From a virus, in IMG/VR virus record IMGVR_UViG_3300027782_004732, positions 1 through 64,000 of that record: a DNA stretch of 64,000 nucleotides; one strand, 5' to 3'. The notes below the pieces were generated by a model. That model saw only the letters and a program-made list of their open reading frames with translations. It had not been told where the DNA came from and searched no databases. This document shows positions 2,292 through 53,820 of the stretch, one piece after another. The stretch's first letter is position 1; every line of letters begins with the position of its first letter. Position numbers and translations under genes: made by a program.

Positions 2292-2759
2292 TTAACAGTA
2301 CGCTCCTGAACAATGTTTTTTACCATCTAAACCTTTGATATCACCTTTACATACTTGAACTGCATAACCATTTGCGTATGCTGAAGGATAAACTTTAAAT
2401 TTTGATTTAGCCGCAGATTTACCTCTTGAACAAAGTGGAGTTCCTGTTTTTTTCCTACCTTCATTCATTTCTTCATAATCCACATATTGTGATTCCTTAT
2501 CCATTTCATTTTTTAAGAAATCAAATACTTGGTCTATATTGGTTTTTGCTCCAGATATATGGTCATCAGCCCAATCATGTCCGTTTTGAATAATATCGTC
2601 AATCATGTTTGGGTCCATTTCCATCATCATTTCAATTTGTCTTTTCATTTGTTTTAAATTAGAAAAGAACATATAGTTCGCGTTTTCAACTTCTTGTTCT
2701 GTAAGAACTTTTTTAACTATTCGGTTTAAATCTGATTCTGTTAATTTAACTGTTTTCAT
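2292..2759 (-). CDS. Phage protein with capsid-targeting-like N-terminus, 155 aa
   Basis: Residues 1-21 form an amphipathic helix (MKTVKLTESDLNRIVKKVL, ending LTEQ) with two LTE tripeptides. This resembles T4 capsid-targeting peptides removed by the prohead protease. The middle is acidic and Met-rich. The C-terminal 55 residues (GTPLCSRGKSAAKSKF, then KVYPSAYANGYAVQVCKG and a final HCSGAYC) follow a motif I have seen in phage and large-virus proteins of unknown function. It contains four cysteines. The start shares one base with the stop of the upstream 506-residue gene. A packaged internal protein is inferred. Confidence 0.55.
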   Translation of the reverse strand: MKTVKLTESDLNRIVKKVLTEQEVENANYMFFSNLKQMKRQIEMMMEMDPNMIDDIIQNGHDWADDHISGAKTNIDQVFDFLKNEMDKESQYVDYEEMNEGRKKTGTPLCSRGKSAAKSKFKVYPSAYANGYAVQVCKGDIKGLDGKKHCSGAYC

Positions 2760-29694: not shown

Positions 29695-32256
29695 ATGGCA
29701 TATCAAAATATTAATCAATATAATTTTAGAAGATTTGGTCTAAAACCTGTCAATGAAGTGACCGACTTATGTCTTGCTTCAGATGAAAAAGATTACGACC
29801 AAGAAGTTATTTTTTCACCATTATTAATTGGTGAAGACGATGGTAATAGAATGCCATTCAAATTTGATTTTAATAGTAGTGGTACCACATTATGTCAGGT
29901 TTCACCTTGTGTTTTTAGTAGTGATACAATCGTTTCTGAAAATTATTGGAACCCAACAGACACTGACCCAAATTTTTGCCCTATAGTTACTAACTTATGT
30001 GATGTTGGACTGACAGGTATTGATAACGGGTTGGTACAGAATATGTCGGGAGAAACTATTCAAGTAACAACAGGGTTATATACAAATATTTCTGATAAAT
30101 TTAGCAGATACAAATATGATAGGAGAATGAAACTTCATCCTATCACTGGTTTTACAACAACACAAAATAGATTGTGGAATGATGGTTCATACAATTATGA
30201 TTTATCGTACACAAATGCAGGTGGAGATATTGGATATGTTGCAACTTTAAATGGTGGTTTCTATCAAGGATTCTACAAACTTGCAGGATATAATTACCAA
30301 GTATTCCCTGAAAGAGTTAGTTTAGGTTGGACAACTGAATTCATGTTAAAATACAGATGGACTGGTGATACTTCAGTTGGATTAAATGTTAGATACCCTG
30401 AAAATAAAGGAACATTCTTTTATATGGGGGCAAGAGCAGAAAATAAATTTTATCATTATGCCGATGGTAGTCCAAAACAAGATACAGGATATACAAGAGT
30501 TACCTCAGGTTTAACTTGTATGCACACTTGTGGTTGTGCTAGTAGTGCAAATACATCTTCAGAATGTCTTCAAGTTTACCAACCATCAGGAGGAACTATC
30601 ACAACTTGTTTATGTGGTTGTCCATGTGAATGTAGTACAAGTGCTCAATACCCTGAAAAAGACCCATTATACGATGAAGTCTCAAACGCTCTATCATTAA
30701 GATTAAGTGGTGATACTGGTAGTCCAAGATTATGTGTTAAAACATATAGAATAACTGGTGGATGTGAAAGTACTGGAACTTGTTTAACAGGTATAACCTA
30801 TGTTACAGGTACTTCGGTAACTGAATGGTGTTCAACAAGAGGTATTTTTGATGATTGTTCGGGAACAACTTACCAAAACGTAGAACATTGGGCTCAAATT
30901 GATGCCGTATTCCAAAGATATGAATGGTTAGATACTTGTGACTTATATGATAAAGGTGGGTTAGGTCTGCTTGTTAAAGACGTATATTTTGCAACAATTG
31001 AAGGTAGAAGTGTTTCGTTAATTGAACCACCAATTACCCACGAACAACCTTACGACCCAGCGTCAACCGAAGTTGTGACATTTAATGACATGTGGACTGA
31101 AGAACAAAAATACAGATTAGGTACACTTAAGTTTTATGTTAACGGTAAATTATTCATGGTTGTTGAAAACTTTGAAGAAATAATTCCAAGATTATTGAAT
31201 ACTCCAAAAGAAAAACAAATTGGTGTTGGATATAACATTTCAATTGGTGGTGGTACCCAAGGTCTTCACGACAACTTAACTTTTTCAGGTGGGTGTTCAG
31301 TTGATTTAAGTGGACTTCAATATCAACAAGACCCTGAATGTTTAACAACTTATGATTTAGATAATACAATTTATTCAGGTTTAACAACCCAAATTAGATT
31401 AGAAGAATTGTTTGGTGGTAGTATGATTGGTGATATTAGTGCGTTTAGAATGTATACCGAACCATTAAACGCCGCTCAGATTAAACATAATTTTAAAATA
31501 CTAAAAGACACATATAATTTATTAAACCCTGATTGTCTTAATTGTAGAATTGTTATACCATCAAACGATTTATATTATATAACAATCCCTGATAATGATT
31601 TATCATATATTAGTATACCAGCAAATGATTTATATTATGAACTAATTCAACCTAGTCCAACACCAACAAACACCCCAACGTTAACTCCAACACAAACGGT
31701 AACTCAAACTCCGACAAATACTAATACCCCAACGTTAACCCAAACTCCAACTAATACCCCAACTAATACTTTAACTAATACGCCAACAAATACATTAACT
31801 AATACTCCAACAAATACATTAACCCCAACCAATACTGAAACACCTACAAATACACCAACTGTTACTCCAACTAATACACCAACTAATACTCAAACTCCAA
31901 CACCTACTAATACTGAAACGCCGACAAATACACCTACTAATACTAATACACCAACGGTAACTCAAACTCCAACAAATACTGAAACGCCAACACCAACCAA
32001 TACTGAAACACCAACTAATACACCTACAAGTACAGAAACTCCGACTAACACTCCTAGTGAAACTCCAACTAACACGCCCACAAATACAGAAACTCCAACT
32101 AATACTCCAACTAACACACCCACAATAACTGTGACACCAACTAATACTAAAACTCCAACGCCGACACCAACGTCAACTGAACCATTCTTTATTTTAATTC
32201 AAAGTGGTGACATATTAACGGCTCAAGATGGTAGTGGAATAGAATATCAACATTAA
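29695..32256 (+). CDS. Large virion surface protein with lectin-like domain and Thr/Pro/Asn linker, 853 aa
   Basis: Residues 1-640 are beta-rich, with a concanavalin/LamG-like feel in the second half ([39 protein letters not shown]). A cysteine-rich insert lies near residues 274-315, with many CxC pairs ([10 protein letters not shown]). Residues 619-648 are three copies of a 10-residue unit, for example [10 protein letters not shown]. Residues about 653-828 are a long linker of PTNT, TPTNTET and similar units. A short beta tail ([17 protein letters not shown]) ends it. The layout suggests a fibre, or decoration anchored to the particle, carrying a binding domain on a rigid, possibly glycosylated stalk. 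Confidence 0.7.
31549..31638 (+). repeat. Three 10-residue in-frame repeats
   Basis: [20 protein letters not shown] and [10 protein letters not shown] follow each other without a gap inside the 853-residue protein, just before its Thr/Pro linker. Each unit has the I-x-I-P-x-N-D-L-x-Y pattern. Confidence 0.85.
31651..32180 (+). repeat. Thr/Pro/Asn-rich low-complexity repeat, about 175 residues
   Basis: The DNA is built from short units such as ACTAATACTCCAACA coding PTNT, TETPT and NTPT. Codons vary (CCA, CCG, CCC, CCT), so the repeat is kept at protein level. No other reading frame here is credible. Confidence 0.9.
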
Positions 32257-32262
32257 AACTAA

Positions 32263-32269
32263 TATTTAT
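32263..32269 (+). promoter_or_regulatory. TATTTAT late-promoter candidate
   Basis: AATATTTATAGAA then ATG at 32274, a gap of 4 bases, in the 17-base space after the 853-residue gene. Confidence 0.45.
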
Positions 32270-32273
32270 AGAA

Positions 32274-32786
32274 ATGGCAAACGTACTAATCGCAAATTTA
32301 CCAACATACACAGGAAACACAAATGGTGCTTTTCTTGTTATGAACAATAGTGGCAACACAGAATCATTCAAAGTAACCAAAGAAACATTACTTAGTGGGT
32401 ATTCACAAAATGCAATATCACCAGTAACGGGAAGCTGGACGGTGACTCCAGGGACTAATAACTACAGTTTTACGGTTGATATTAATAATACATATAACTT
32501 ATGGGTTCTTGGAAATATACCAAATGGTATAATAGTTTATAATGCCACAGTAAGTGTTAGTAATACTAATGTACCCGTAATTGGTGTTCAGTATGCATGG
32601 AATTATACTGGTGGGAGTAGTCCAATATTGTTTACAAGTATCCCTGTACAGATTATAGGAACCGCGGGTGCAATATCCACAGCGTCACCAGCTGTAGGTA
32701 CATCAACAAATACATTTGTATTCGGTATTCAAAACAATACGGTATCAGGTCTTACGGTTAATTACGGATATGTTAAAGTAAGTTAA
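32274..32786 (+). CDS. Beta-rich fibre-like protein, 170 aa
   Basis: The opening (VLIANLPTYTGNTNGAFLVM) resembles short fibre-attachment segments of tail-fibre proteins. The rest alternates strands and Asn/Ser/Thr-rich turns with no motif and ends YGYVKVS. It lies between the large lectin-like protein and the modular linker proteins, starts 17 bases after one and ends one base before the other. It is probably part of the same surface structure. It is the only gene of the block without a Thr/Pro linker. Confidence 0.6.
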   Translation: MANVLIANLPTYTGNTNGAFLVMNNSGNTESFKVTKETLLSGYSQNAISPVTGSWTVTPGTNNYSFTVDINNTYNLWVLGNIPNGIIVYNATVSVSNTNVPVIGVQYAWNYTGGSSPILFTSIPVQIIGTAGAISTASPAVGTSTNTFVFGIQNNTVSGLTVNYGYVKVS

Positions 32787-32787
32787 A

Positions 32788-33351
32788 ATGTACACTACAG
32801 ACTGTAATTACTATAGAATAACAAATTATAATAATGTCCAAGAAGGATATTATAGTTGGACTGGTTGTACTGATATAATTAGTGTTAGCCCTATTGGTAC
32901 CCTTCAAACAAGTTATGTTTGTGCTAAAAATATATTCGTTGAAGAATATGGTGCACCTCTTGATGTTGTCTTTATTGGATTATGTCCGTCAAGTACCCCA
33001 ACACCAACAGTAACTCCAACAGTAACTCCAACAAGAGCTACACCAACGCCAACTCCAAGTCATACCGCAACACCGACAATAACACCAACAATAACACCAA
33101 CAATGGTTTTAATGTACAATTTAAGAACTGGTGGTTACTATCAGGATGTTTGTGATTCAATAAATTTTGGTAACGCAGCAAACGTGACAATTTATACTCA
33201 AAAAGCATTTACGTCTTTGGTTCCTGGTGACCATGTTTATGGTAACCCTGCATTAACAATACCACCAATAAATGCAAACTTTACAATATCAAATGGTGCT
33301 AAATTTATTCAAATAAGTGGAACGTTAGTAATTAATGTTGGAGTGTGTTAA
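32788..33351 (+). CDS. Modular surface protein with Thr/Pro linker, 187 aa
   Basis: The N-terminal domain of about 65 residues (YYRITNYNNVQEGYYSWTG) is joined by a Thr/Pro linker (residues about 68-105) to a C-terminal domain of about 78 residues (YNLRTGGYYQDVCD through LVINVGVC). This C-terminal domain shares an outline (early Cys, TIY, central Gly and final C) with domains in the next two genes. It starts one base after the previous gene. A particle-surface adhesin or decoration role is inferred. Confidence 0.6.
   Translation: MYTTDCNYYRITNYNNVQEGYYSWTGCTDIISVSPIGTLQTSYVCAKNIFVEEYGAPLDVVFIGLCPSSTPTPTVTPTVTPTRATPTPTPSHTATPTITPTITPTMVLMYNLRTGGYYQDVCDSINFGNAANVTIYTQKAFTSLVPGDHVYGNPALTIPPINANFTISNGAKFIQISGTLVINVGVC
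32989..33103 (+). repeat. Thr/Pro linker repeat
   Basis: Units TPTVTPTVTP and TPTITPTITP join the two domains of the 187-residue protein. Confidence 0.85.
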
Positions 33352-33366
33352 TTTAAAATAATTAAG

Positions 33367-33373
33367 TATTTAT
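33367..33373 (+). promoter_or_regulatory. TATTTAT late-promoter candidate
   Basis: AGTATTTATTGAT then ATG at 33378, a gap of 4 bases. Confidence 0.45.
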
Positions 33374-33377
33374 TGAT

Positions 33378-34568
33378 ATGGCAATTGGAATAAGAATTTT
33401 AAGTAATAATTTGAGTGGTCAAACCACAAATGTTACGTATTTCCCAGATACAGGGGGTACAATTGATTTGGGGTCTCAGGTATTCCCATTTAATTATATA
33501 TCAAGTTATTATTATGGTAACTACGATTGTTATGTTCCAACATATGGATATAACTATGTTATTAATGTGCCAGGACCAACACCTACACCAACAATAACAC
33601 CTACACCAACAATTACTCCAACAGGTTTAACCCCTACTTCTACTACAACACCAACACCTACACCAACTAACACGGAAACACAAACTAGTACGCCTACAAA
33701 TACTGCAACACCAACTAATACTCCAAGTGTTACCACAACAAATACTGTAACGCCAACAGTAACATCAACACCAACAGTAACATCAACTCAGACACCGACT
33801 GCAACAATTGGTTTAACCCCAACTCCAACGCCAACAAGAGCAAGATTTAGTTTTGTTGTTTATCCAGGCGCAACTTATGATGAATCTTGTGGTCAATATA
33901 ATTCAACAACCACAATTTATGGTGAAAAGTCAATTTTTGATGAAAACTCAGAATTCTTTAATAGTGTTTATGGTCCTGTAACGATTAACATGTCAGGATA
34001 TTATAAAAATAGTGGAACCGTTGTTGAGTTAAATACCAATGGTACCCTAACAACTGGTGTATTTAGTTTATGTACAACATTAACACCAACACCAACTAAT
34101 ACTGAAACTCCTACACCAACCCCTACTAATACAGAAACACCTACACAAACTCCGACTAACACCGAAACTCCTACACAAACCCCAACTGAAACTCCAACAC
34201 AAACACCAACTGAAACTCCAACACAAACACCAACTGAAACTCCCACACAAACACCAACTAACACTGAAACACCAACACAAACACCAACTAACACTGAAAC
34301 ACCAACTAACACTCCAACACCAACAATAACCGCAACATCAACTATTACTCCAACACTAACACCAACACCAACAGCCACAATTCCTTTCTGTAGAAGTTTT
34401 ACATTTAATGGTGGAACTGGTCCTGATGGTACTCTTTTTGTAGTTACAGAATGTAATGGACCTAGTTATTCATTTACATTACAACAAAATAATACAGATA
34501 TCATTTGTGTTTCAAATTACATTATACTTAGTGGTAATGGTTTTGTAACCTATAGGAATCCTTGCTAA
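33378..34568 (+). CDS. Modular surface protein with two Thr/Pro linkers, 396 aa
   Basis: There are three folded parts separated by two linkers. Residues 1-65 are an N-terminal domain. Residues about 66-155 are linker one. Residues about 155-232 are the shared domain ([19 protein letters not shown] through LTTGVFSLC). Residues about 236-335 are linker two, built from ETPTQTPT units. Residues 335-396 are a C-terminal domain with [19 protein letters not shown]. The shared domain aligns closely with the middle domain of the next gene (IYxExSxFDxNxxF and SGxY). This is a beads-on-a-string surface protein, probably receptor-facing. Confidence 0.65.
33573..33840 (+). repeat. Thr/Pro linker repeat
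   Basis: Linker one of the 396-residue protein, with units such as [19 protein letters not shown] and [10 protein letters not shown]. Confidence 0.85.
34082..34380 (+). repeat. Thr/Pro/Glu linker repeat
   Basis: Linker two of the 396-residue protein. A near-perfect 24-base DNA unit coding TPTETPTQ recurs in tandem around 34180-34250. This is the most regular DNA repeat in the window and a likely place for copy-number change. Confidence 0.88.
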
Positions 34569-34611
34569 GAAATATTTTAAACATTATTGAAAATAATAAA
34601 CAACATTGTAG

Positions 34612-34618
34612 TATTTAT
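34612..34618 (+). promoter_or_regulatory. TATTTAT late-promoter candidate
   Basis: TAGTATTTATATTT, 18 bases before the ATG at 34637. Confidence 0.45.
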
Positions 34619-34636
34619 ATTTAAACAGAATTTAAG

Positions 34637-35641
34637 ATGGCATGTAGTAAATATACTTTAACAAATACGGGTACAACCGCAATCAACTTCAACTATAGAA
34701 GATGCGATGACTCTATGTGGGAATATCAAGTAAACCTTGACCCAAATCAAACTAAAAATATTTGGTTAATTAACGGAACTTATGATGCCGCTCAAATTTT
34801 TGAGTCAAGCATTGTATTGGTTAATGACGGAGCATATCCTTTAACTCCAACGCCAACAAGAACTCCAACATCAACACCAACTAACACTCCAACTCCGAGC
34901 GTTACTGCAACTAATACAGGGACACCAACATCAACACCAACAAACACTCCAACAGTAACACAAACTCAAACTACAAGTGCTACTCCAACTCCGAGCGTTA
35001 CTGCAACTAATACAGGAACTCCGACATCAACACCAACAAGAACTCCAACACAAACTGTTACACCAACAAATGCATATGATACGTTTAATATAACTTCAGG
35101 TTCAACTGCAAATAATGCATGTGCTGGTGGATTATCAGGAACTATTTACGCAGAAAATTCATTGTTTGATAGTAACACCCAATTCTATAACAACTCAAAT
35201 GGTACTGTTTCTGGTAACATGTCAGGTTTCTATAGTTATGGTGGACAATATATTCAATTAAATTCAGATGGTAGTTTGACAACAGGTATTTATAGCTTAT
35301 GTTCAGTAGTACCGACTCAAACCCCAACACCAACAAATACCGTAACACCAACAACTACAACAACTCCTACAACAACACCTACCGCAACATTTGGTTATTA
35401 CACGTATAGTTTAGGTACAGGTGCAACCGCAAATGATGCTTGTATTGATTTTGGTTCGGCACCTAATACAATTTACGGAACAGTTGCTGGAGGTCCTGGA
35501 CCAAATACAGGTGAATACTTATACTTTAATACCGCATTAACTATTGCGGTTGCGGATGGTTATTATTCTAACGGAACTGCTTGGTATCAAGTTACTGGTG
35601 GAGCAGGTCAAATTACTTCGGTAGACCCAACAGGATGTTAA
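34637..35641 (+). CDS. Modular surface protein with two copies of the shared domain, 334 aa
   Basis: Residues 1-68 are an N-terminal domain ([20 protein letters not shown], resembling a C-type beta sandwich). Residues about 69-145 are linker one. Residues about 147-225 are shared domain copy one ([16 protein letters not shown] through LTTGIYSLC). Residues about 227-250 are a short linker. Residues about 251-334 are shared domain copy two ([17 protein letters not shown] through VDPTGC). It ends the surface block just before a strong terminator. The combination with the two previous genes points to tandem duplication and domain shuffling. Confidence 0.65.
34841..35066 (+). repeat. Thr/Pro linker repeat
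   Basis: Linker one of the 334-residue protein. The segment coding [17 protein letters not shown] occurs twice almost identically (about 34892-34945 and 34986-35040). Confidence 0.85.
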
Positions 35642-43800: not shown

Positions 43801-44922
43801 TTAAATTACATATATTTGACGAGGCATTGCTCTGTACTTCATTTGTTTATTTAAGTTTTCCGCAATTAAGGCTTCTCGTTCCATAACTTTTTCAGGTCTT
43901 AATCTTGTTAACCAACCTTCAGCACCTGTAAGTTCTTCTATTAATTTTGTTTTTTCATCTTTACCCTCGGTCAACAAACTTGTGTAGTCCATAGTTAATT
44001 CCGAATCAGGAACTTTTAAGTTTCCACTATATTTTCCTCTAACCCTACCTAATGTTTCTTTAACGTAAGCGGTAAACCATCTTCTAACCCATTGTTGTGC
44101 AGGTACGTTTAAGTCAGACCAAGTAAGTTCCTCTAATGGAACATCGTTTGGTGATTTAATTACATCAGGATTATTTTTTAAACAGTCTGCTCTACTATCA
44201 GGAGTTACATCGTAATACCAATACCAAACAGCCTTACCAACATATTGACTATAATTTCCCCAGTTAAAATGATTACCAGGTGCATTGTATAATTGTAAAT
44301 CTTTTTTACCATCAGGTAATGCTGTGATTCTATAAGTTAAAGAACCTCCAAGGATTCTGTTTAAAATGTTCGCTTCTTGCATTCTTATTAGATAGTCAAA
44401 ACCTGACATCATATAATAAGAACCTTGATACCCCATTTGGGCAAAACCAGCTTCATTTGCACCAAGTCCTGCACCACCAAATCCACCAATACCACCCATA
44501 CCAAATGCGGTAATAGGTTGGTTACTAAACCATAACACTTCATTAATTTCACGACCTGCAGGGATTTCGTAGTTTTGTTTGTTCTGTTCAAGAATAATAT
44601 AATCTTTCTTTAACACCCAAGGACCTTCGGCTTGAAGACCAACAATTTTTGAATATGAATATGCAAATTGTTGTTCAAAATCCATTGTTCTTGTAATCAA
44701 TGCATTTGCAACGGATTTTTCAGTCATGTTTAAGTTAACCAAGTTAACCCATTGACTATCAATCAACCAATTTAAAATGTATTGTTCATAATCTTGAATA
44801 GAAAGTTCCATTAAAGAATCCATCATTTCATCTTCAATCTCAACACTTCTAATTGGGGCTCCCAATAAGTGTTTAACTCTCGTATAAATTTTTGACCTTT
44901 CTGGTTCTGGAATAACTGCCAT
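43801..44922 (-). CDS. Neck / head-tail connector candidate, 373 aa
   Basis: The N-terminal helices (KIYTRVKHLLGAPIRSVEIE, DEMMDSLMELSIQDYEQYIL) have the paired-helix layout of connector and neck proteins such as T4 gp13-type. A Gly-rich loop (GMGGIGGFGGAGLGANEAGF) lies in the middle. The C-terminus (LGRVRGKYSGNLKVPDSELT, YRAMPRQIYVI) looks conserved for interaction. It has its own TATTTAT box 5 bases before the ATG. A portal-proximal or neck role is inferred from architecture, not from a confident family match. Confidence 0.5.
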   Translation of the reverse strand: MAVIPEPERSKIYTRVKHLLGAPIRSVEIEDEMMDSLMELSIQDYEQYILNWLIDSQWVNLVNLNMTEKSVANALITRTMDFEQQFAYSYSKIVGLQAEGPWVLKKDYIILEQNKQNYEIPAGREINEVLWFSNQPITAFGMGGIGGFGGAGLGANEAGFAQMGYQGSYYMMSGFDYLIRMQEANILNRILGGSLTYRITALPDGKKDLQLYNAPGNHFNWGNYSQYVGKAVWYWYYDVTPDSRADCLKNNPDVIKSPNDVPLEELTWSDLNVPAQQWVRRWFTAYVKETLGRVRGKYSGNLKVPDSELTMDYTSLLTEGKDEKTKLIEELTGAEGWLTRLRPEKVMEREALIAENLNKQMKYRAMPRQIYVI

Positions 44923-44946: not shown

Positions 44947-46479
44947 TTATTGTATATTATACATTAGAGAATCAATTGGAAAAATAAAATTACCTTTAAC
45001 AATTTTAGGTTTCTTGTTAAATATTAAAACGTTTTTACCTTTTTGAAAAATCATTAAGTCTGTGTTATAAATCTTAACACTTGCGGTACCTTCTAAAGTA
45101 ATCCCATCTTCACCCATAATCATATGTCTAAATGGTTTAATTTGGCCAGTTAAAACTTCACCATCTCTTGTAATCTCTAAATCAATACCTTGTATTGCAT
45201 CTCTTTTACTTCCTAATTCACCAACAACTTCAACTTTAACATCTTTACCAAAATGTCTTTTAAGGATTGACGCGGTAATTTCTTCTCGTTTTGAGCCAGC
45301 TTTATCTTTATCTGTTAAAGTTCTTAATAGATTATGAAGAGTTGTGCTATCTTTATCAAAGATTCTATATTTGAAGTGGTCAATCGCTTTAATAAACCTT
45401 TCAACCTCCCTCTTTTGTTCTAATGGTTTTTTGTCCATAAAACTAATTGGTTTTTTATTTGGGATTTTTGAAATGACTTGGTTTAAATCTTTTAATAAAA
45501 TACAAAAAGCTGTGTAGTTTGTGTTTAACTTATTTATAACAGACCTACCAGGACCTTCAAGGTCATAAACACCAGGTAATTGGTCGTTTTCAGGTTTTAA
45601 TATATAATTTTCAGGAAAAACTTCTTTCATGATTTTATTAATACCATTCATATAAGTCCATTTAATATCTGAATTTACATTGAACAACATTCTATAAAAT
45701 TCGTTCTCTGATTGAGAACACATTTCAGATTTACCTTCACTCAAAACTTGTTTCATTTTGGTTGACTCGGTTAGTTTGGTTTCAACTTTCATTTCATACA
45801 TCTTGGTAACAAAGTCCCAATTAACTACTTTCCAAAAGTTTGTGATGTATTCATCTCTTTTGTTTCTGTATTTCAAATAGTAAGCATGTTCCCATAAGTC
45901 CAGCCCTAATAAAGGGAATCCCCCACCTTCAATCACATTCATTAATGGATTGTCTTGGTTTGGAGTTGACATAATTTTTAACGTATTATTTGAGGTTAGA
46001 ATTAACCATACCCAACCTGAACCAAAACGGTCTTTGGCTTGTTTTTCAAATTCTTTTTTGAAGTTGGTGAATGTCCCCCATTGTTTGGTTATCTTTTTAT
46101 AAAGTTCGCCATCCAATTTTTTAGGTTCAGGAGTTAACATGTTCCAAAACAATGCGTGGTTAAATGCTCCACCTGCGTTGTTTCTTATTGTCTTATCAAA
46201 ACGACTGATGGTCTTGATAATTTTTTCTAAATCTAAATCTCCGTATTTCTTTTTAGCTAATGCGTCGTTTAGTTTATCCACGTACCCTTTATAATGTTTA
46301 TTATAATGAAAGTTCATTGTCTCTGGGTCAATAAACTGTTTGAGGGCTGTATAGGAGTAAGGTAACTTTTCTATTCCTATTTTTTTCATTTCGGTAATCA
46401 ACAACTCTTTTTCTTGGTTAACGTGGTTCTCAAGTATTTGTTTTTCTAGTTGTTGGATTTTCTCTTGTGTTTTTTTCAT
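44947..46479 (-). CDS. Superoxide dismutase fused to PD-(D/E)xK-like nuclease domain, 510 aa
   Basis: Residues about 1-30 are coiled coil. Residues about 36-228 are an Fe/Mn superoxide dismutase with all metal ligands (H58, H108, D194, H198). NNAGGAFNHALFW, NQDNPLM and GLDLWEHAYYLKY favour the Mn type. Residues 235-250 (KLTESTKMKQVLSEGK) are a linker with LTE and LSE tripeptides. Residues about 255-510 contain a nuclease-like core: EEITASILKRHF (Glu), IDLEI (D433) and GQIKPF (Q446, K448), the order expected in PD-(D/E)xK enzymes. The dismutase removes superoxide; the partner domain may bind or cut DNA. The linker may be a proteolytic site. Confidence 0.8.
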   Translation of the reverse strand: MKKTQEKIQQLEKQILENHVNQEKELLITEMKKIGIEKLPYSYTALKQFIDPETMNFHYNKHYKGYVDKLNDALAKKKYGDLDLEKIIKTISRFDKTIRNNAGGAFNHALFWNMLTPEPKKLDGELYKKITKQWGTFTNFKKEFEKQAKDRFGSGWVWLILTSNNTLKIMSTPNQDNPLMNVIEGGGFPLLGLDLWEHAYYLKYRNKRDEYITNFWKVVNWDFVTKMYEMKVETKLTESTKMKQVLSEGKSEMCSQSENEFYRMLFNVNSDIKWTYMNGINKIMKEVFPENYILKPENDQLPGVYDLEGPGRSVINKLNTNYTAFCILLKDLNQVISKIPNKKPISFMDKKPLEQKREVERFIKAIDHFKYRIFDKDSTTLHNLLRTLTDKDKAGSKREEITASILKRHFGKDVKVEVVGELGSKRDAIQGIDLEITRDGEVLTGQIKPFRHMIMGEDGITLEGTASVKIYNTDLMIFQKGKNVLIFNKKPKIVKGNFIFPIDSLMYNIQ

Positions 46480-46501
46480 AATTTTGGATTATCCGTTATA
46501 T

Positions 46502-46508
46502 ATAAATA
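46502..46508 (-). promoter_or_regulatory. TATTTAT late-promoter candidate
   Basis: Leftward ATTATTTATATATAAC, 22 bases before the ATG at 46479. Confidence 0.4.
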
Positions 46509-46520
46509 ATCCGTAGTTGC

Positions 46521-48272
46521 CTAATTTCGCAGATTATTAATTCTTTGTAGAATTTCTTCTGCTGCGTCGGCGGGGTGTTGGTCATCTCCCATTACTGTTG
46601 CGATGACTTGTTTTTTGTTGTTTAGGATATCGTAGATGATTCCTTCTATTGTGTTTTCAAAGATTGGGTAATAAACCAAAACATTATTCTTTTGTCCGTA
46701 ACGATAAGCTCGGTCTTCTGATTGGGCGTGGTCTGAAGGTAAAAACGATAGGTCATTCATAATAACCGCTTCAGCGGCTGTTAATGTAATACCAACACCT
46801 GCGGCTTTAATATTACCCACAAAAACTTTAACTTTTGGATTGTCTTGAAATTGGTCAACCGAATGTTGTCGTTCAGGTTTTGACATTGAGCCGTCAAGTT
46901 TAACCGCGGCTTTTCCAAAATGTTCGGTAATCTTATTTAAAGAATCGGTAAAGTTACAGAATATAATAACCTTCTTGTCTTGTTCTAAAATGTTTTCAGC
47001 AAGTTCAATTGTTTGAGCAATTTTTTCGTCAGCAATAATTTGTCTAACCTTTGTCAGTTTTGAGAATTGAACCGTAAGTGATTTTGATTCTTCAGGATTC
47101 TTATCATACCAATCATAATATTCCCCCATCACTTCTTCGTATTGTTTAGATTTTAATCTAAGGTATACTGGTGTAATAATTTTGTCAGGTAGGTCAAGAA
47201 CATTCTCTTTTAATCTTCTTAAAGTTAATCCTAATGTTCGGTCTCTTAACTCTTCCAAGTTTGATGCTCCCGTTACATTCCAAACTTTTCTTCCACCAAC
47301 ATTAAATTGATAACCTTGACAATATCTGATTGCATATGCCATCCAATTCTTTGCCACAGGTGAATCAATTAAACTTAATAAGTTGAAATAATCTATTGGT
47401 CGTGATGTCATTGGGGTTCCCGTCAATAACCAAAGTCTGTCAGTTTTTTTAACAATGTCGTTGATTAATTTTGTCCTTTGCGCTGTAGCATTTTTAATAT
47501 AGTGTGCTTCATCAACAATGACCAAATCAAAATTGGAAGCAAGAATTTGCGACTCATCTTTCTTCTTAGTGTCATGGAAATTTTTAATAATATCGTAGTT
47601 TATGATAACAAAATCCGCTTCAGTACTAAAGTTTTTACTTTCGGCAATGAACACAGTTTTATCTGAATAGTTTTCAATTTCACGTTTCCAGTTAATTTTT
47701 AAAGTTGCTGGACAAATAATCAAAGCCTTTTTGGAACCCGCCTCTAATGCGGCAATAATCGTTGAAGTTGTTTTACCAAGACCCATATCATCTGCCAAGA
47801 TAAACTTTTTATTTTCAACTAATTTTTGGATTGCTTCTTTTTGGTGTTCAAGTGGTGGACGATGAGAATATTTTGAATAATCAATTACAACATCTTTAAC
47901 AGAATTGTCTTTTATGATTGCGGCTTTTGGTAACCAAAAATCGTGAAGTTCTTCACTATCAAAAACTTTACCCCAAATGTGGTATGCCTTTTCTTTATCC
48001 GCCAATAACTTTTCAACCCAAACTTTTTGTGGGATTTCTGTGTATAATTTGTCGTCCGCCAATTTCTGAGCAAAATAGGCATCAAGAATCACCCACTTCT
48101 TAGCAACTTTTGGTTGCTTATCGTGGAACGATATAATGTATTCCGATTGACTCCTTGTTGGGTAGAATTTCTTGTTAATTTTAGATTTACGTTTCAATTC
48201 CAAAAGGTAGTTATTACCACCTTCATAACCCTCAAGAATAGTCATCGCTTTTGACTCCAAACTTATTTCCAT
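46521..48272 (-). CDS. SNF2-family helicase/ATPase, 583 aa
   Basis: Walker A is DDMGLGKT at 161-168, the DEAH box at 254-257 (DLVIVDEAHYIKN), TGTPMTSRPIDYFNL motif III, and the second lobe carries KVIIFCNFTDSLNKI, GNIKAAGVGITLTAA and SEDRAYRYGQ (motif VI). The order and the RYGQ ending are those of SNF2 proteins, of which T4 UvsW is a functional relative. The first 130 residues may be a HARP-like or substrate-binding extension. It probably remodels forks or recombination intermediates in phage replication and repair. It is divergent from the late virion block at 48329. Confidence 0.9.
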   Translation of the reverse strand: MEISLESKAMTILEGYEGGNNYLLELKRKSKINKKFYPTRSQSEYIISFHDKQPKVAKKWVILDAYFAQKLADDKLYTEIPQKVWVEKLLADKEKAYHIWGKVFDSEELHDFWLPKAAIIKDNSVKDVVIDYSKYSHRPPLEHQKEAIQKLVENKKFILADDMGLGKTTSTIIAALEAGSKKALIICPATLKINWKREIENYSDKTVFIAESKNFSTEADFVIINYDIIKNFHDTKKKDESQILASNFDLVIVDEAHYIKNATAQRTKLINDIVKKTDRLWLLTGTPMTSRPIDYFNLLSLIDSPVAKNWMAYAIRYCQGYQFNVGGRKVWNVTGASNLEELRDRTLGLTLRRLKENVLDLPDKIITPVYLRLKSKQYEEVMGEYYDWYDKNPEESKSLTVQFSKLTKVRQIIADEKIAQTIELAENILEQDKKVIIFCNFTDSLNKITEHFGKAAVKLDGSMSKPERQHSVDQFQDNPKVKVFVGNIKAAGVGITLTAAEAVIMNDLSFLPSDHAQSEDRAYRYGQKNNVLVYYPIFENTIEGIIYDILNNKKQVIATVMGDDQHPADAAEEILQRINNLRN

Positions 48273-48328: not shown

Positions 48329-48841
48329 ATGCAGAAATTAGTTCCAATTACAAGATTAGGTAAGTTTTTTGGCGGAGAAGATTACGCCTTAGATACTGGT
48401 ATGGGTCAAGAGTGGTTAGAAGGAGATATTAACTTCACTGTTGTATTATATCGTATTGACCGATATAAAACAAAAACTGATAGTGTGTATGGTGAAGTTT
48501 TAGAAGATGGGGTACAATTCTTGGCACCTGTTGAATTAAAAGGGTTAGTTCAAGTTATGGCTCCTACCAATAAATTTTTGGGTAGTTCTAAAGTTGAACA
48601 ACAAGAACCAGGTAATATGAAATTTTCACTTTATCAAAAACAACTTGAGGACTTGGGAGTTGAAATATTTATGGGAGACTATATTGGTTATTATGAAACT
48701 GAAGACCGAGTTAGATATTATTCAGTTAGTGATGATGGATATGTAAGGTCTGACAATAAACACACATATGCAGGATACAAACCGTTCTATAGAACAATTG
48801 TTGCAACATATGTAAGTGAAAACGAATTTAGAGGAATTTAA
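48329..48841 (+). CDS. Virion protein, possible head-closure/neck component, 170 aa
   Basis: The frame can be extended to a TTG at 48311, but the promoter-like box lies there and ATG 48329 (MQKLVPITRLGKFFGGEDYA) is the better start. The protein is beta-rich with LGVEIFMGDYIGYYETEDRV and RYYSVSDDGYVR near the end, similar in style to the C-terminal part of neck proteins of T4-like phages. It starts the late rightward operon leading to the sheath and tube genes, which supports a neck or tail-completion role. Its final base is shared with the next ATG. Confidence 0.5.
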   Translation: MQKLVPITRLGKFFGGEDYALDTGMGQEWLEGDINFTVVLYRIDRYKTKTDSVYGEVLEDGVQFLAPVELKGLVQVMAPTNKFLGSSKVEQQEPGNMKFSLYQKQLEDLGVEIFMGDYIGYYETEDRVRYYSVSDDGYVRSDNKHTYAGYKPFYRTIVATYVSENEFRGI

Positions 48842-49251
48842 TGAAAGTCGTAATAACAGAATCTCAGTTTGATTCTTTATTTATAGGTAAGAAAGTTATG
48901 GTGTATTATAATTTACACAAACATACTTTTTCTGTTACATATGATAATAAAGTAATTATGCATGCAGATTATGTTAAATTGGGTGACGTTGAGTTTAGAG
49001 TTAGAAAAGGTGGTAAAGAGAGAGTTCGTTCTGAAAAATCAAAAAACGTTCACGCATTTGTGATTGGAAAATTATTAGACTATTGTGAATACCCTTGTGA
49101 CAATATACCATCACCTTCTTCAAATAAAGTTGTGACTTACAACCCATATAAATACGACACGTTTGTATTTAAAAATACGGAAGAGCCTGTTTATCATGCA
49201 CAAGAAGTTGATATGATAAACTCAAAAGATAAACTATTTGTTGTAAAATAA
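48841..49251 (+). CDS. Phage protein with ITES N-terminus, 136 aa
   Basis: MKVVITESQFDSLFIGKKVM begins with the same ITE-type motif seen in several unrelated proteins here. The body is basic (FRVRKGGKERVRSEKSKN) with a mixed C-terminal half. It overlaps the previous gene by one base and precedes the tail-terminator candidate by four. It may be a small head- or tail-associated protein. No family is recognised. Confidence 0.55.
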   Translation: MKVVITESQFDSLFIGKKVMVYYNLHKHTFSVTYDNKVIMHADYVKLGDVEFRVRKGGKERVRSEKSKNVHAFVIGKLLDYCEYPCDNIPSPSSNKVVTYNPYKYDTFVFKNTEEPVYHAQEVDMINSKDKLFVVK

Positions 49252-50577: not shown

Positions 50578-53500
50578 ATGGCAACAGCACAAGCAAATCA
50601 AAAAGTATTCGTATCACCAGGCGTATACACATCTGAAACCGACTTATCATTCGTAGCCCAAAGTGTGGGAGTAACGACTTTAGGTCTTGTTGGAGAAACT
50701 ATAAAAGGTCCAGCATTCGAACCAGTATTCATAACTAACTATGATGAGTTCCAAGCTTATTTCGGGGGAACAGAACCCGTTAAGTTTTACAACACTCAAA
50801 TACCTAAGTATGAGGCTGCATATATCGCTAAATCATATTTACAACAATCTAACCAATTGTTTGTTACCAGAGTTTTAGGTTTATCAGGTTATGACGCAGG
50901 TCCATCTTGGACTATTAACGTTACTGCCAATGTAGACCCAACAACTATTGGTAACCCATCTGTTGGTGTTGCGTTTAGTGCAAACTTCACAGGAAGTTCA
51001 TCAGGTAATACAATTACTTTTGTTGGTGGTTCTTTACCTACTGAAGTTAGTGCTAATTTAAATGTACAATATAGATTACAAGACGGTTCAACATCAACAT
51101 TACAAGACGACTTTAACACTTATTTAGATGCTATTATGGACACACCATCTACATCTGCAACAACTGCAGTTATATATGGTTCAATTCCTGAAGTAGATTA
51201 TCAAAACTTAAGTGATGTTTATACAAATGATTATAGTCCTTATGGTTGTGAAAATAATTTTTCTCAAAATGATTTAAGTGCTGGTTCAAACGATAGTTGG
51301 TATTATGCTAATTTTGAATTTGAAAATTATGATTCTACAACAAACAATTATACAGGTTATTCATTCTACTATACAGTATCTAATTTAGTGTCTGGTGCTT
51401 CAAGTACATTCACAGGTACTATTACAGGTTATTCGTATACTTTTACAGGTACAGCATATTCTGAATTTAATAACATGGTTATTGCTACTGTTCGTTCAAG
51501 AGGTGTTTCTCAATATGAAAATAGTAGTTCAAGTATTAATCACGGACCTGTTTATCAAGTTGGTGTTGACTATGACAATAATAATACTTGGGTACCAAAC
51601 AATTTAAAAATGGTAACAACTGGTCAATATTCAGGAATAACTAAATCACCATATGCACAATTTGCTTTATCAGGTTTAACTAAAGAAGGAACTGTTTTTG
51701 AATTAGTATCATCTTTACTAGCGTCTGACGCAAAATATATCACTAAGGTTTTAGGTGTTGACAATTTTGGTAAATCAAGATTTGATGTTCCAATTTATGT
51801 TGAGGAAGCTTATCAAGCGTCTTTAAATTATGCTTATAATCAAGGTTATATTCGTGGATTAAATCCTGAATTAATCGCTTTACCTGATGCTAGAAGTGAA
51901 AATAGTTTATCAATTGCATATAACTTAGAAAAATACCAATCACCTGAAACACCTTATTTAGTTTCAGAATTAAGAGGTAATAAAGTTTATAACTTATTTA
52001 AATTCATATCAATTTCTGATGGTGATGCTGCAAACACTGAAATTAAAGTTTCAATTGCTAACTTATCATATAATAATATGTCTTTTGATGTATTAATTAG
52101 AAATTTCTTTGACACAGATGCAAATCCTGTTGTTATTGAAAAATTCACAAATTGTAACATGGACCCAGGTTCAAATAACTTTGTGGCTAAAAAGATTGGT
52201 TCTGCTAATGGAGAGTTCGCATTAATATCAAGATACGTTATGATTCAATTAGCTGACGAATATCCAATTGATGCGTTACCTTGTGGTTTTTATGGTTATA
52301 CCCAAAGAGAATATGAAGACTATAACATTTATCCTTCACCATATCCTAAATATAAAACAAAATACTATTACCCTGGTGAAGTTGTTGCTAACCCACCATT
52401 TGGTTCAAGAGCAGGTGGAGGAACAGTTGAATCAGCAGGTGACATAGTTAGAAGAACTTATTTAGGTTTTTCAAGTCAATTTGGTATTGACGAATCTTTC
52501 TTAACTTATAAAGGTAAACAAACACCATCAAATTGGATTTCAAACCCATTGGCTGAAGGTCAACCTTGGAATGTGATAAGTAAAGGTTTCCACATGGACT
52601 CAGGTGCTACAGTTGTAACAATCGGTATTACATCAATGTCAAGTGGTGAAACTGCATTTGAATGTGGTGTTGCAGAATTTAGAGCTGACCCAGCAACTCA
52701 AGAAAATCCATACTATTTTATCTACTCAAGAAAATACACAGTATGTTTCGCAGGTGGATTTGACGGATGGGATATTTACAGAGAGTGGAGAACTAACCAA
52801 GATAGATTCCAATTGGGTTCATCAGGTTACTTAGCAGGAGCATCCGCATCTTCAAGATACCCAACAGCGACAGGTGACGGTCTATTCAAAAGAATTGTGG
52901 TTCAAAACAATACACAAGATTTTGCTAACACTGACTACTACGCTTACTTACTTGGTATCTTAACATTTGCAAATCCTGAAGCTACAAACATTAACGTTTT
53001 TGCAACTTCAAGTATTGATTATGTTAACAACTCAAACTTAGTAGAAGAAGCAATAGATATGATACAATATTCAAGAGCTGACTCGGTTTACATCGCAACA
53101 ACTCCTGACTACAACATGTATACTCCTGATTCAACTAACCCACAAGATATCATTTACTCACAAGAGGCTGTTGATAACTTAGATAACACAGGAATTGACT
53201 CTAACTATACTGCAACTTACTATCCTTGGATTTTAACAAGAGATACAGTAAACAATACTCAAATTTACTTACCACCAACAGGTGAGGTTTGTAGAAACTT
53301 AGCATTGACTGATAACATTTCATTCCCTTGGTTCGCATCAGCGGGTTACACAAGAGGTCTTGTAAACTCAATCAAAGCTAGACAAAAACTTACACAAACT
53401 GACAGAGATACATTGTATCAAGGTAGAATTAACCCTATCGCAACTTTCTCTGATGTTGGAACTGTAATTTGGGGTAACAAAACATTACAAGTTGCTGACA

Positions 53501-53820
53501 CAGCACTTAACAGATTGAACGTAAGAAGATTATTACTTCAAGCTCGTAAGTTGATTTCAGCAGTAGCAATAAGATTATTGTTTGAGCAAAACGACCAAAT
53601 CGTTAGACAACAATTCTTGGATAGTGTTAACCCTATCTTAGACTCAATTAGAAGAGATAGAGGTTTATACGATTTCCGTGTAACCGTATCTTCAACACCT
53701 GAAGATTTAGATGCTAACAGACTTGTAGGTAAAATCTACTTAAAACCAACGAAAGCATTGGAGTTCATTGATATTGAATTCTTTATCACTCCAACAGGTG
53801 CTTCGTTTGAAAATATCTAA
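50578..53820 (+). CDS. Tail sheath protein, gp18-like, 1080 aa
   Basis: The N-terminus (FVSPGVYTSETDLSFVAQSV, LVGETIKGPAFEPVFITNYD, QAYFGG) and C-terminus (LNRLNVRRLLLQARKLISAV, GLYDFRVTVSSTPEDLDANR, VGKIYLKPTKALEFIDIEF) are the two conserved ends of contractile tail sheath proteins. The sheath contracts to drive the tube into the host. At 1080 residues it is much longer than T4 gp18 (659). The extra, beta-rich material lies around residues 120-400 and probably makes outward-facing domains. A hairpin closes the gene. Confidence 0.92.
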   Translation: MATAQANQKVFVSPGVYTSETDLSFVAQSVGVTTLGLVGETIKGPAFEPVFITNYDEFQAYFGGTEPVKFYNTQIPKYEAAYIAKSYLQQSNQLFVTRVLGLSGYDAGPSWTINVTANVDPTTIGNPSVGVAFSANFTGSSSGNTITFVGGSLPTEVSANLNVQYRLQDGSTSTLQDDFNTYLDAIMDTPSTSATTAVIYGSIPEVDYQNLSDVYTNDYSPYGCENNFSQNDLSAGSNDSWYYANFEFENYDSTTNNYTGYSFYYTVSNLVSGASSTFTGTITGYSYTFTGTAYSEFNNMVIATVRSRGVSQYENSSSSINHGPVYQVGVDYDNNNTWVPNNLKMVTTGQYSGITKSPYAQFALSGLTKEGTVFELVSSLLASDAKYITKVLGVDNFGKSRFDVPIYVEEAYQASLNYAYNQGYIRGLNPELIALPDARSENSLSIAYNLEKYQSPETPYLVSELRGNKVYNLFKFISISDGDAANTEIKVSIANLSYNNMSFDVLIRNFFDTDANPVVIEKFTNCNMDPGSNNFVAKKIGSANGEFALISRYVMIQLADEYPIDALPCGFYGYTQREYEDYNIYPSPYPKYKTKYYYPGEVVANPPFGSRAGGGTVESAGDIVRRTYLGFSSQFGIDESFLTYKGKQTPSNWISNPLAEGQPWNVISKGFHMDSGATVVTIGITSMSSGETAFECGVAEFRADPATQENPYYFIYSRKYTVCFAGGFDGWDIYREWRTNQDRFQLGSSGYLAGASASSRYPTATGDGLFKRIVVQNNTQDFANTDYYAYLLGILTFANPEATNINVFATSSIDYVNNSNLVEEAIDMIQYSRADSVYIATTPDYNMYTPDSTNPQDIIYSQEAVDNLDNTGIDSNYTATYYPWILTRDTVNNTQIYLPPTGEVCRNLALTDNISFPWFASAGYTRGLVNSIKARQKLTQTDRDTLYQGRINPIATFSDVGTVIWGNKTLQVADTALNRLNVRRLLLQARKLISAVAIRLLFEQNDQIVRQQFLDSVNPILDSIRRDRGLYDFRVTVSSTPEDLDANRLVGKIYLKPTKALEFIDIEFFITPTGASFENI

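What the first reader, a model, noticed from the sequence alone, without database searches (positions are those of the whole stretch)
44947..46479. Superoxide dismutase fused to a nuclease-like domain
Seen: an Fe/Mn dismutase with all four metal ligands (H58, H108, D194, H198) continues in frame into a C-terminal domain with the Glu, Asp and QxK order of PD-(D/E)xK nucleases. I know of no established dismutase-nuclease fusion. Inference: the protein may protect packaged or injected DNA from oxidative damage, or the dismutase may be carried in the particle and act on entry, with the second part binding DNA.
Basis: partly seen in the sequence, partly recalled or inferred. Interest (0 to 1): 0.78.

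Follow-up and report, generated by a model that had tools for sequence, protein, structure and literature searches.

The report
Cleavable phage superoxide dismutase–nuclease fusion
In a large group of uncultured T4-like phages one gene joins a superoxide-destroying enzyme to an exchangeable nuclease through a linker that looks like a cutting site for the phage's own head protease, which suggests the two enzymes are packed in the virus head, cut apart and injected together.

Summary
ORF 44947-46479(-), 510 aa, is an intact Mn-type superoxide dismutase (aa 36-230) fused in frame to a helical middle part and a PD-(D/E)xK nuclease fold (AlphaFold pLDDT 91.5; best PDB matches I-Ssp6803I and Hjc resolvases). 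It is no assembly error: dozens of related contigs encode the full-length fusion. The catalytic residues of both halves are invariant. The SOD is the constant part of a family at one fixed locus, between a UvsW-like helicase and a head-completion (neck) gene. The parts around it vary: an HExxH domain before it in some phages, and at least five kinds of C-terminal part or none after it. A 93-sequence alignment has only three conserved [LI]-x-E sites with a free middle residue: one just before the SOD, two in the linker after it. That is the T4 gp21 prohead-protease motif, and relatives encode gp21 and a gp23 capsid protein with the equivalent site (LINE|A). In one close pair of phages only the nuclease part is replaced, with the breakpoint at the linker. 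Best reading (about 0.6): a head-packaged, protease-matured multi-enzyme cargo, injected with the DNA. Packaging, cleavage and both activities are inferred, not shown.

The parts
44947..46479 (-). SOD-nuclease fusion gene, 510 aa
   Evidence: full-length homologs in viral contigs
46390..46479 (-). N-terminal helical propeptide-like segment, aa 1-30; in relatives the same place follows an HExxH domain
46390..46398 (-). predicted prohead-protease site 1, I28-T29-E30|M31, just before the SOD
   Evidence: 24/24; 98.9% of 93 sequences, P2 free; inferred cleavage
45790..46374 (-). Mn-type Fe/Mn superoxide dismutase domain, aa 36-230; ligands H58, H108, D194, H198; Y66, Q175
45724..45789 (-). linker aa 231-252, low confidence (pLDDT<50 at 239-251) in the full-length model
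45766..45774 (-). predicted prohead-protease site 2, L236-T-E238|S
   Evidence: inferred cleavage
45736..45744 (-). predicted prohead-protease site 3, L246-S-E248|G; also the place where the nuclease cassette is exchanged
   Evidence: inferred cleavage
45310..45723 (-). helical middle domain aa 253-390 with near-invariant GRSxxNKLNTNY (aa 311-322)
   Evidence: no known family
44950..45309 (-). PD-(D/E)xK nuclease domain, aa 391-510; E399, D433, Q446, K448 (and D427) invariant
43801..44922 (-). downstream gene: head-completion/neck-like protein (PHROG 211; homolog of Immutovirus 'putative head completion protein')
46521..48272 (-). upstream gene: SNF2/UvsW-like helicase; conserved neighbour

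Best explanation
The gene encodes a head-packaged cargo precursor. (1) The precursor enters the prohead core, probably through its N-terminal helical segment, like the capsid-targeting propeptides of T4 internal proteins (inferred). (2) During head maturation the gp21-type S77 protease cuts after [LI]-x-E at E30, E238 and E248. This frees a mature Mn-type SOD (aa 31-238), a short linker peptide (239-248) and a PD-(D/E)xK nuclease (249-510) inside the head (motifs shown, cutting inferred). (3) Both enzymes pass into the cell with the DNA (inferred). The SOD removes superoxide in the freshly infected cell, sparing the incoming DNA and metal enzymes. The nuclease acts on DNA of the host or of rival elements before new phage proteins are made; its exchangeability points to an arms-race target (inferred). 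The SOD is the constant core, while the flanking domains are exchangeable payloads.
For: Among 93 unique family sequences only three positions combine conserved [LI] and E with a variable middle residue: before the SOD (98.9%), and twice in the linker (88.6% and 82.4%). The only other [LI]xE is LWE in the SOD core, with W invariant. The P1 Glu before the SOD is 71/71 over ten different P2 residues; all 44 distinct linkers carry at least one site and 39 carry two, against 37% and 8% of random 34-aa stretches of phage proteins. T4 gp21 cuts after L/I-X-E, and T4 IP propeptides of 10-19 aa target cargo to the head (PMC9026906). Relatives encode S77 protease (2 of 9 and 5 of 10 records) and gp23 capsid protein (2/2 and 7/10), whose N-terminus carries LINE|A. 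Synteny with the head-completion gene holds across architectures. L014 and L075 are 79-98% identical at DNA level across the flanks and SOD but only 52-74% over the C-terminal part. Different C-terminal parts share the same linker pattern. Catalytic residues are invariant and the fold matches PD-(D/E)xK enzymes.
Against: No virion proteomics or cleavage data exist for these phages here, and no isolate of the group was found. The window's own record (70.6 kb fragment) does not hold the protease gene; co-occurrence rests on relatives. [LI]xE is a short motif and helical linkers are rich in L and E. P1' is Met or Ile at site 1, whereas the capsid protein site has A there. No T4-type late promoter (TATAAATA) on the gene's strand was found just upstream of the gene. 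The first part of the full-length model is of low confidence.
Confidence: 0.6

Rival explanations
1. A bifunctional cytoplasmic enzyme made during infection and never packaged: the SOD keeps the infected cell alive (auxiliary metabolic role) while the attached nuclease degrades host DNA or processes phage DNA; the fusion only keeps expression equal.
For: Phages such as PA5oct and Vibrio phage 2.275.O encode stand-alone SODs, and some members here are SOD alone. The upstream neighbour is a DNA-processing helicase.
Against: It does not explain three sites with fixed [LI] and E but free P2 exactly at the domain borders, kept even where the attached domain differs, nor the fixed place next to a head-completion gene.
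Confidence: 0.25
2. The SOD fold is a structural or carrier module of the head (a stable dimer used to package whatever is fused to it), its enzymatic activity being secondary; the payloads are the point.
For: The SOD is the constant part while N- and C-terminal domains come and go (at least 13 changes of C-terminal type, 7 of the N-terminal domain).
Against: All metal ligands and second-shell residues are invariant and dN is very low; SOD-only members exist, which a mere carrier would not explain.
Confidence: 0.1
3. The C-terminal nuclease is a selfish, homing-type invader parked in the SOD gene; its best PDB match is a homing endonuclease.
For: Best PDB match is I-Ssp6803I; the C-terminal part is exchanged locally.
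Against: The same fusion is kept across deep branches of the SOD tree, under purifying selection, with a matched linker. No intein or intron signature was noticed (not searched for specifically). Hjc matches are nearly as good.
Confidence: 0.05

Closest known systems
T4 internal head proteins (IPI-III, Alt) with capsid-targeting propeptides cut by gp21
   Same: N-terminal helical segment ending in I-x-E; relatives have gp21- and gp23-type genes; diverse, fast-changing cargo
   Different: T4 cargo proteins lose only a short propeptide; here two enzymes sit in one precursor with sites between them, and packaging is not shown
Polyvalent proteins of phages and conjugative elements (PMC5512222)
   Same: Unrelated enzymatic domains (zincin-like peptidase, nucleases) in one polypeptide, exchanged modularly, thought to be delivered with the DNA
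   Different: The paper does not mention SOD (0 occurrences of 'superoxide'); it proposes self-processing by zincin domains, whereas the sites here match the head-maturation protease and the window's protein has no zincin
Fe/Mn superoxide dismutases (bacterial MnSOD)
   Same: Complete active site and fold
   Different: Extended and fused at both ends; motif GGAFNH where the best PDB match (6gsc) has GGHYNH
PD-(D/E)xK nucleases of the Hjc/RecU and I-Ssp6803I kind
   Same: Predicted core fold and E...D...QxK residues
   Different: No sequence-level family hit; carries a helical domain of no known family; QxK in place of ExK
UniProt A0A6J5L953 'superoxide dismutase' (uncultured Caudovirales phage, 501 aa)
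   Same: Structure match over nearly all of the C-terminal part (TMq 0.87, 35% identity), so evidently the same fusion
   Different: Deposited under the SOD name only

Membership tests
Fe/Mn superoxide dismutase | Sod_Fe_N and Sod_Fe_C domains | tested here: met
   both above the curated cut-offs
Fe/Mn superoxide dismutase | Three His and one Asp metal ligands, gateway Tyr, active-site Gln | tested here: met
   H58, H108, D194, H198, Y66, Q175 invariant
Fe/Mn superoxide dismutase | Superoxide dismutation in vitro | not testable with these tools
   needs assay
PD-(D/E)xK nuclease superfamily | Core alpha-beta fold | tested here: met
   Foldseek prob up to 1.00 but E 0.01 at best in PDB
PD-(D/E)xK nuclease superfamily | Conserved E...D...(D/E/Q)xK active site | tested here: met
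   E399, D433, Q446, K448 invariant in 30 sequences
PD-(D/E)xK nuclease superfamily | Metal-dependent DNA cleavage | not testable with these tools
   needs assay
T4-type gp21 substrate / internal head protein | [LI]xE sites at domain borders | tested here: met
T4-type gp21 substrate / internal head protein | S77 prohead protease in the same phage | tested here: inconclusive
   absent from the window's 70.6-kb fragment; present in relatives
T4-type gp21 substrate / internal head protein | Found cut inside virions | not testable with these tools
   no proteome available
Polyvalent protein | Two or more unrelated enzymatic domains in one polypeptide, exchanged modularly | tested here: met
Polyvalent protein | Delivered with the DNA | not testable with these tools
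   inferred only

The most novel reading that the evidence does not exclude
A phage 'head polyprotein': the capsid-maturation protease cuts a multi-enzyme precursor (in some phages peptidase–SOD–nuclease) into separate injected enzymes inside the head, with SOD as the fixed core and the nuclease as a swappable cassette. It would also be the first case known to me of a phage injecting an antioxidant enzyme.
Probability: 0.45. Interest if true: 0.88.

Novelty: new variant of a known kind. Interest (0 to 1): 0.76.

Why it matters
No paper found in the library searched describes an SOD-nuclease fusion, an SOD in a polyvalent protein, or a phage that carries an SOD in its head. If the cleavage sites are real, the head-maturation protease is used to release a set of enzymes, much as animal-virus proteases release polyprotein parts, and the linker serves as a natural exchange site for payloads. 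It would make the question of how phages meet the oxidative state of a newly infected cell directly testable, and it points to a set of unknown, fast-exchanged payloads (two or three look like PD-(D/E)xK nucleases) that are candidates for anti-host or anti-rival weapons.

Tried and rejected
Assembly chimera: rejected. C-terminal half as a known Pfam, PHROG or phage protein: no significant hit. Relatives in bacterial genomes: 68 pattern matches, none confirmed. S77 protease in the window's own record: not found, fragment. T4 late promoter TATAAATA: the only copy just upstream (46501-46508) is on the wrong strand and matches are barely above chance. The idea that the C-terminal part also occurs without the SOD: the only such ORF (in L210) overlaps the end of an SOD ORF in the same locus and looks like a frameshift in that contig, not followed further; BFVD suggests a 1113-aa marine phage protein shares it, not retrievable here. 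Type-D C-terminal part against the window's nuclease by profile: no similarity. Homing-endonuclease reading: kept as a weak rival. Close isolates with the fusion: none in 50,697 phage records; nearest cultured relatives found are Flavobacterium phages immuto, whose head region shows no SOD annotation.

Full report
What is there. ORF 44947-46479 on the minus strand encodes 510 aa. Residues 36-230 are an Fe/Mn superoxide dismutase (Pfam E 1.3e-39 and 1.1e-21; best PDB matches are MnSODs, E 5.8e-58). Together with Y66, Q175 and G103 (the Mn-type arrangement, Gln supplied from the C-terminal domain; family knowledge) they are invariant in 24 aligned homologs. The remaining part matches no Pfam or PHROG family significantly and has no match in 50,697 phage records.

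The C-terminal half. AlphaFold with 26 homologs models aa 249-510 at pLDDT 91.5: a helical middle domain and an alpha-beta domain. Foldseek against the PDB puts PD-(D/E)xK enzymes first: I-Ssp6803I (probability 1.00, E 0.01), archaeal Hjc resolvases (0.89), with RecU and MGME1 lower. Against viral models it finds an 'SOD' of 501 aa with TM 0.87 (the same fusion), a 1113-aa marine phage protein with TM 0.82, then PD-(D/E)XK proteins and a Holliday junction resolvase. E399, D427, D433, Q446 and K448 are invariant in 30 divergent homologs, and dN is well below dS. An active nuclease is the natural reading; activity is not shown.

Not an artefact. One search returned 80 viral contig loci with the fusion, 68-100% identical, from many data sets. 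All C-terminal hits in the loci tested were in one ORF with the SOD.

A family with a constant SOD. They share the SOD and, where flanks are held, the locus. The order SNF2/UvsW-like helicase, SOD gene, head-completion-like gene holds across architectures (helicase on the same strand in 158 of 166 loci, neck gene in 145; short contigs account for at least part of the rest). The rest of the protein varies. Type A is the window's form. Some members are SOD alone. Others carry in front an about 140-aa domain with an invariant HEWxH...E pattern, zincin-like by motif only (Pfam SprT-like E 0.009 at best). C-terminal parts of at least four further kinds occur: type C with GQD..QVKP, whose core aligns to the window's nuclease by profile (hhalign probability 57, E 1e-4); type D with DFE..D..SCKI (PD-(D/E)xK by eye only, no profile match); and types E and F, unknown. 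On an SOD tree of 89 sequences the C-terminal type changes at least 13 times and the N-terminal domain at least 7 (quick tree, many weak branches, and truncated contigs may inflate these numbers).

Cassette exchange. L014 and L075 are 87-98% identical at DNA level over the upstream gene (outside its first window) and about 93-97% over the SOD up to about residue 250, then drop to 52-74% to the end of the gene, and rise again to 79-94% in the next gene. Only the payload was replaced, and the breakpoint is the linker.

Cleavage sites. Among 93 unique sequences just three places combine [LI] and E two residues apart with a variable residue between: [LI]xE|M/I/A immediately before the SOD (98.9%), and two in the linker, [LI]xE|S (88.6%) and [LI]xE|G/S/A (82.4%). 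The one other conserved [LI]xE, LWE, has an invariant W and lies in the SOD core. In the window's 24-sequence alignment these are the only fully conserved [LIM]xE. Random 34-aa stretches of these phages' proteins hold two such sites in 8% of cases; 39 of 44 distinct linkers do. The linker is of very low confidence, so probably flexible, in the full-length model. T4 gp21 cuts after L/I-X-E, and short propeptides target internal proteins to the T4 head, from which many are ejected into the host (PMC9026906). Larger relatives encode an S77 protease and a gp23-type capsid protein, and all nine capsid proteins read carry LINE|A at the place of the T4 gp23 maturation cut. The motif is short, so this remains an inference, but its position, its constancy across unrelated flanking domains and its free P2 are what a protease site predicts.

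Mechanism proposed. A head cargo precursor is packaged, cut by the maturation protease into SOD and nuclease, and injected. Shown: the fusion, folds or motifs, conservation, locus, cassette swap, and protease genes in relatives. Inferred: packaging, cutting, injection, both activities, and what they act on. A purely cytoplasmic bifunctional enzyme is the main rival (0.25).

Known and new. The parts belong to known families (MnSOD; PD-(D/E)xK fold). The arrangement works like T4 internal proteins and like the polyvalent proteins of Iyer and colleagues (PMC5512222), which link zincins and nucleases in phage-delivered polypeptides; that paper holds no mention of SOD, and proposes zincin self-processing. 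Literature searches found no report of the fusion (open-access papers only). I therefore call it a new variant of a known kind.

Noticed in passing
L206, L207, L213, L222, L224, L231, L255, L257, L268, L282 (coordinates): Related phages fuse an HEWxH...E (zincin-like) domain in front of the SOD and different, mostly unidentified domains behind it.
   Followed up: partly
window 2292-2759 (-): A 155-aa protein begins MKTVKLTESDLNRIVKKVLTEQ, almost the same pattern as the SOD-nuclease linker (KLTES...VLSE), so it may be another head-packaged protein; orthologs in L183 and L184.
   Followed up: partly
window 48841-49251 (+): Homolog of mycobacteriophage L5 gp82 (Pfam PF25735, E 5e-31) in a T4-like phage, starting MKVVITESQ.
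   Followed up: no
window 29695-35641 (+): Four nearby proteins match the same unknown family phrog_15511 over short stretches (E 7e-6 to 3e-11), perhaps repeated tail-fibre modules.
   Followed up: no
window 50578-53820 (+): Tail sheath protein of unusual length (1080 aa); only the C-terminal part matches sheath families.
   Followed up: no
phages collection, OR84xxxx-OR85xxxx records: SOD hits in unannotated 'phage' records of Staphylococcus, Listeria, Salmonella and Enterococcus look like host contamination of those records.
   Followed up: no
BFVD A0A8D9CCA0: A 1113-aa uncultured marine phage protein shares the middle plus nuclease fold (TM 0.82, 20% identity), perhaps another carrier of the same payload.
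   Followed up: no
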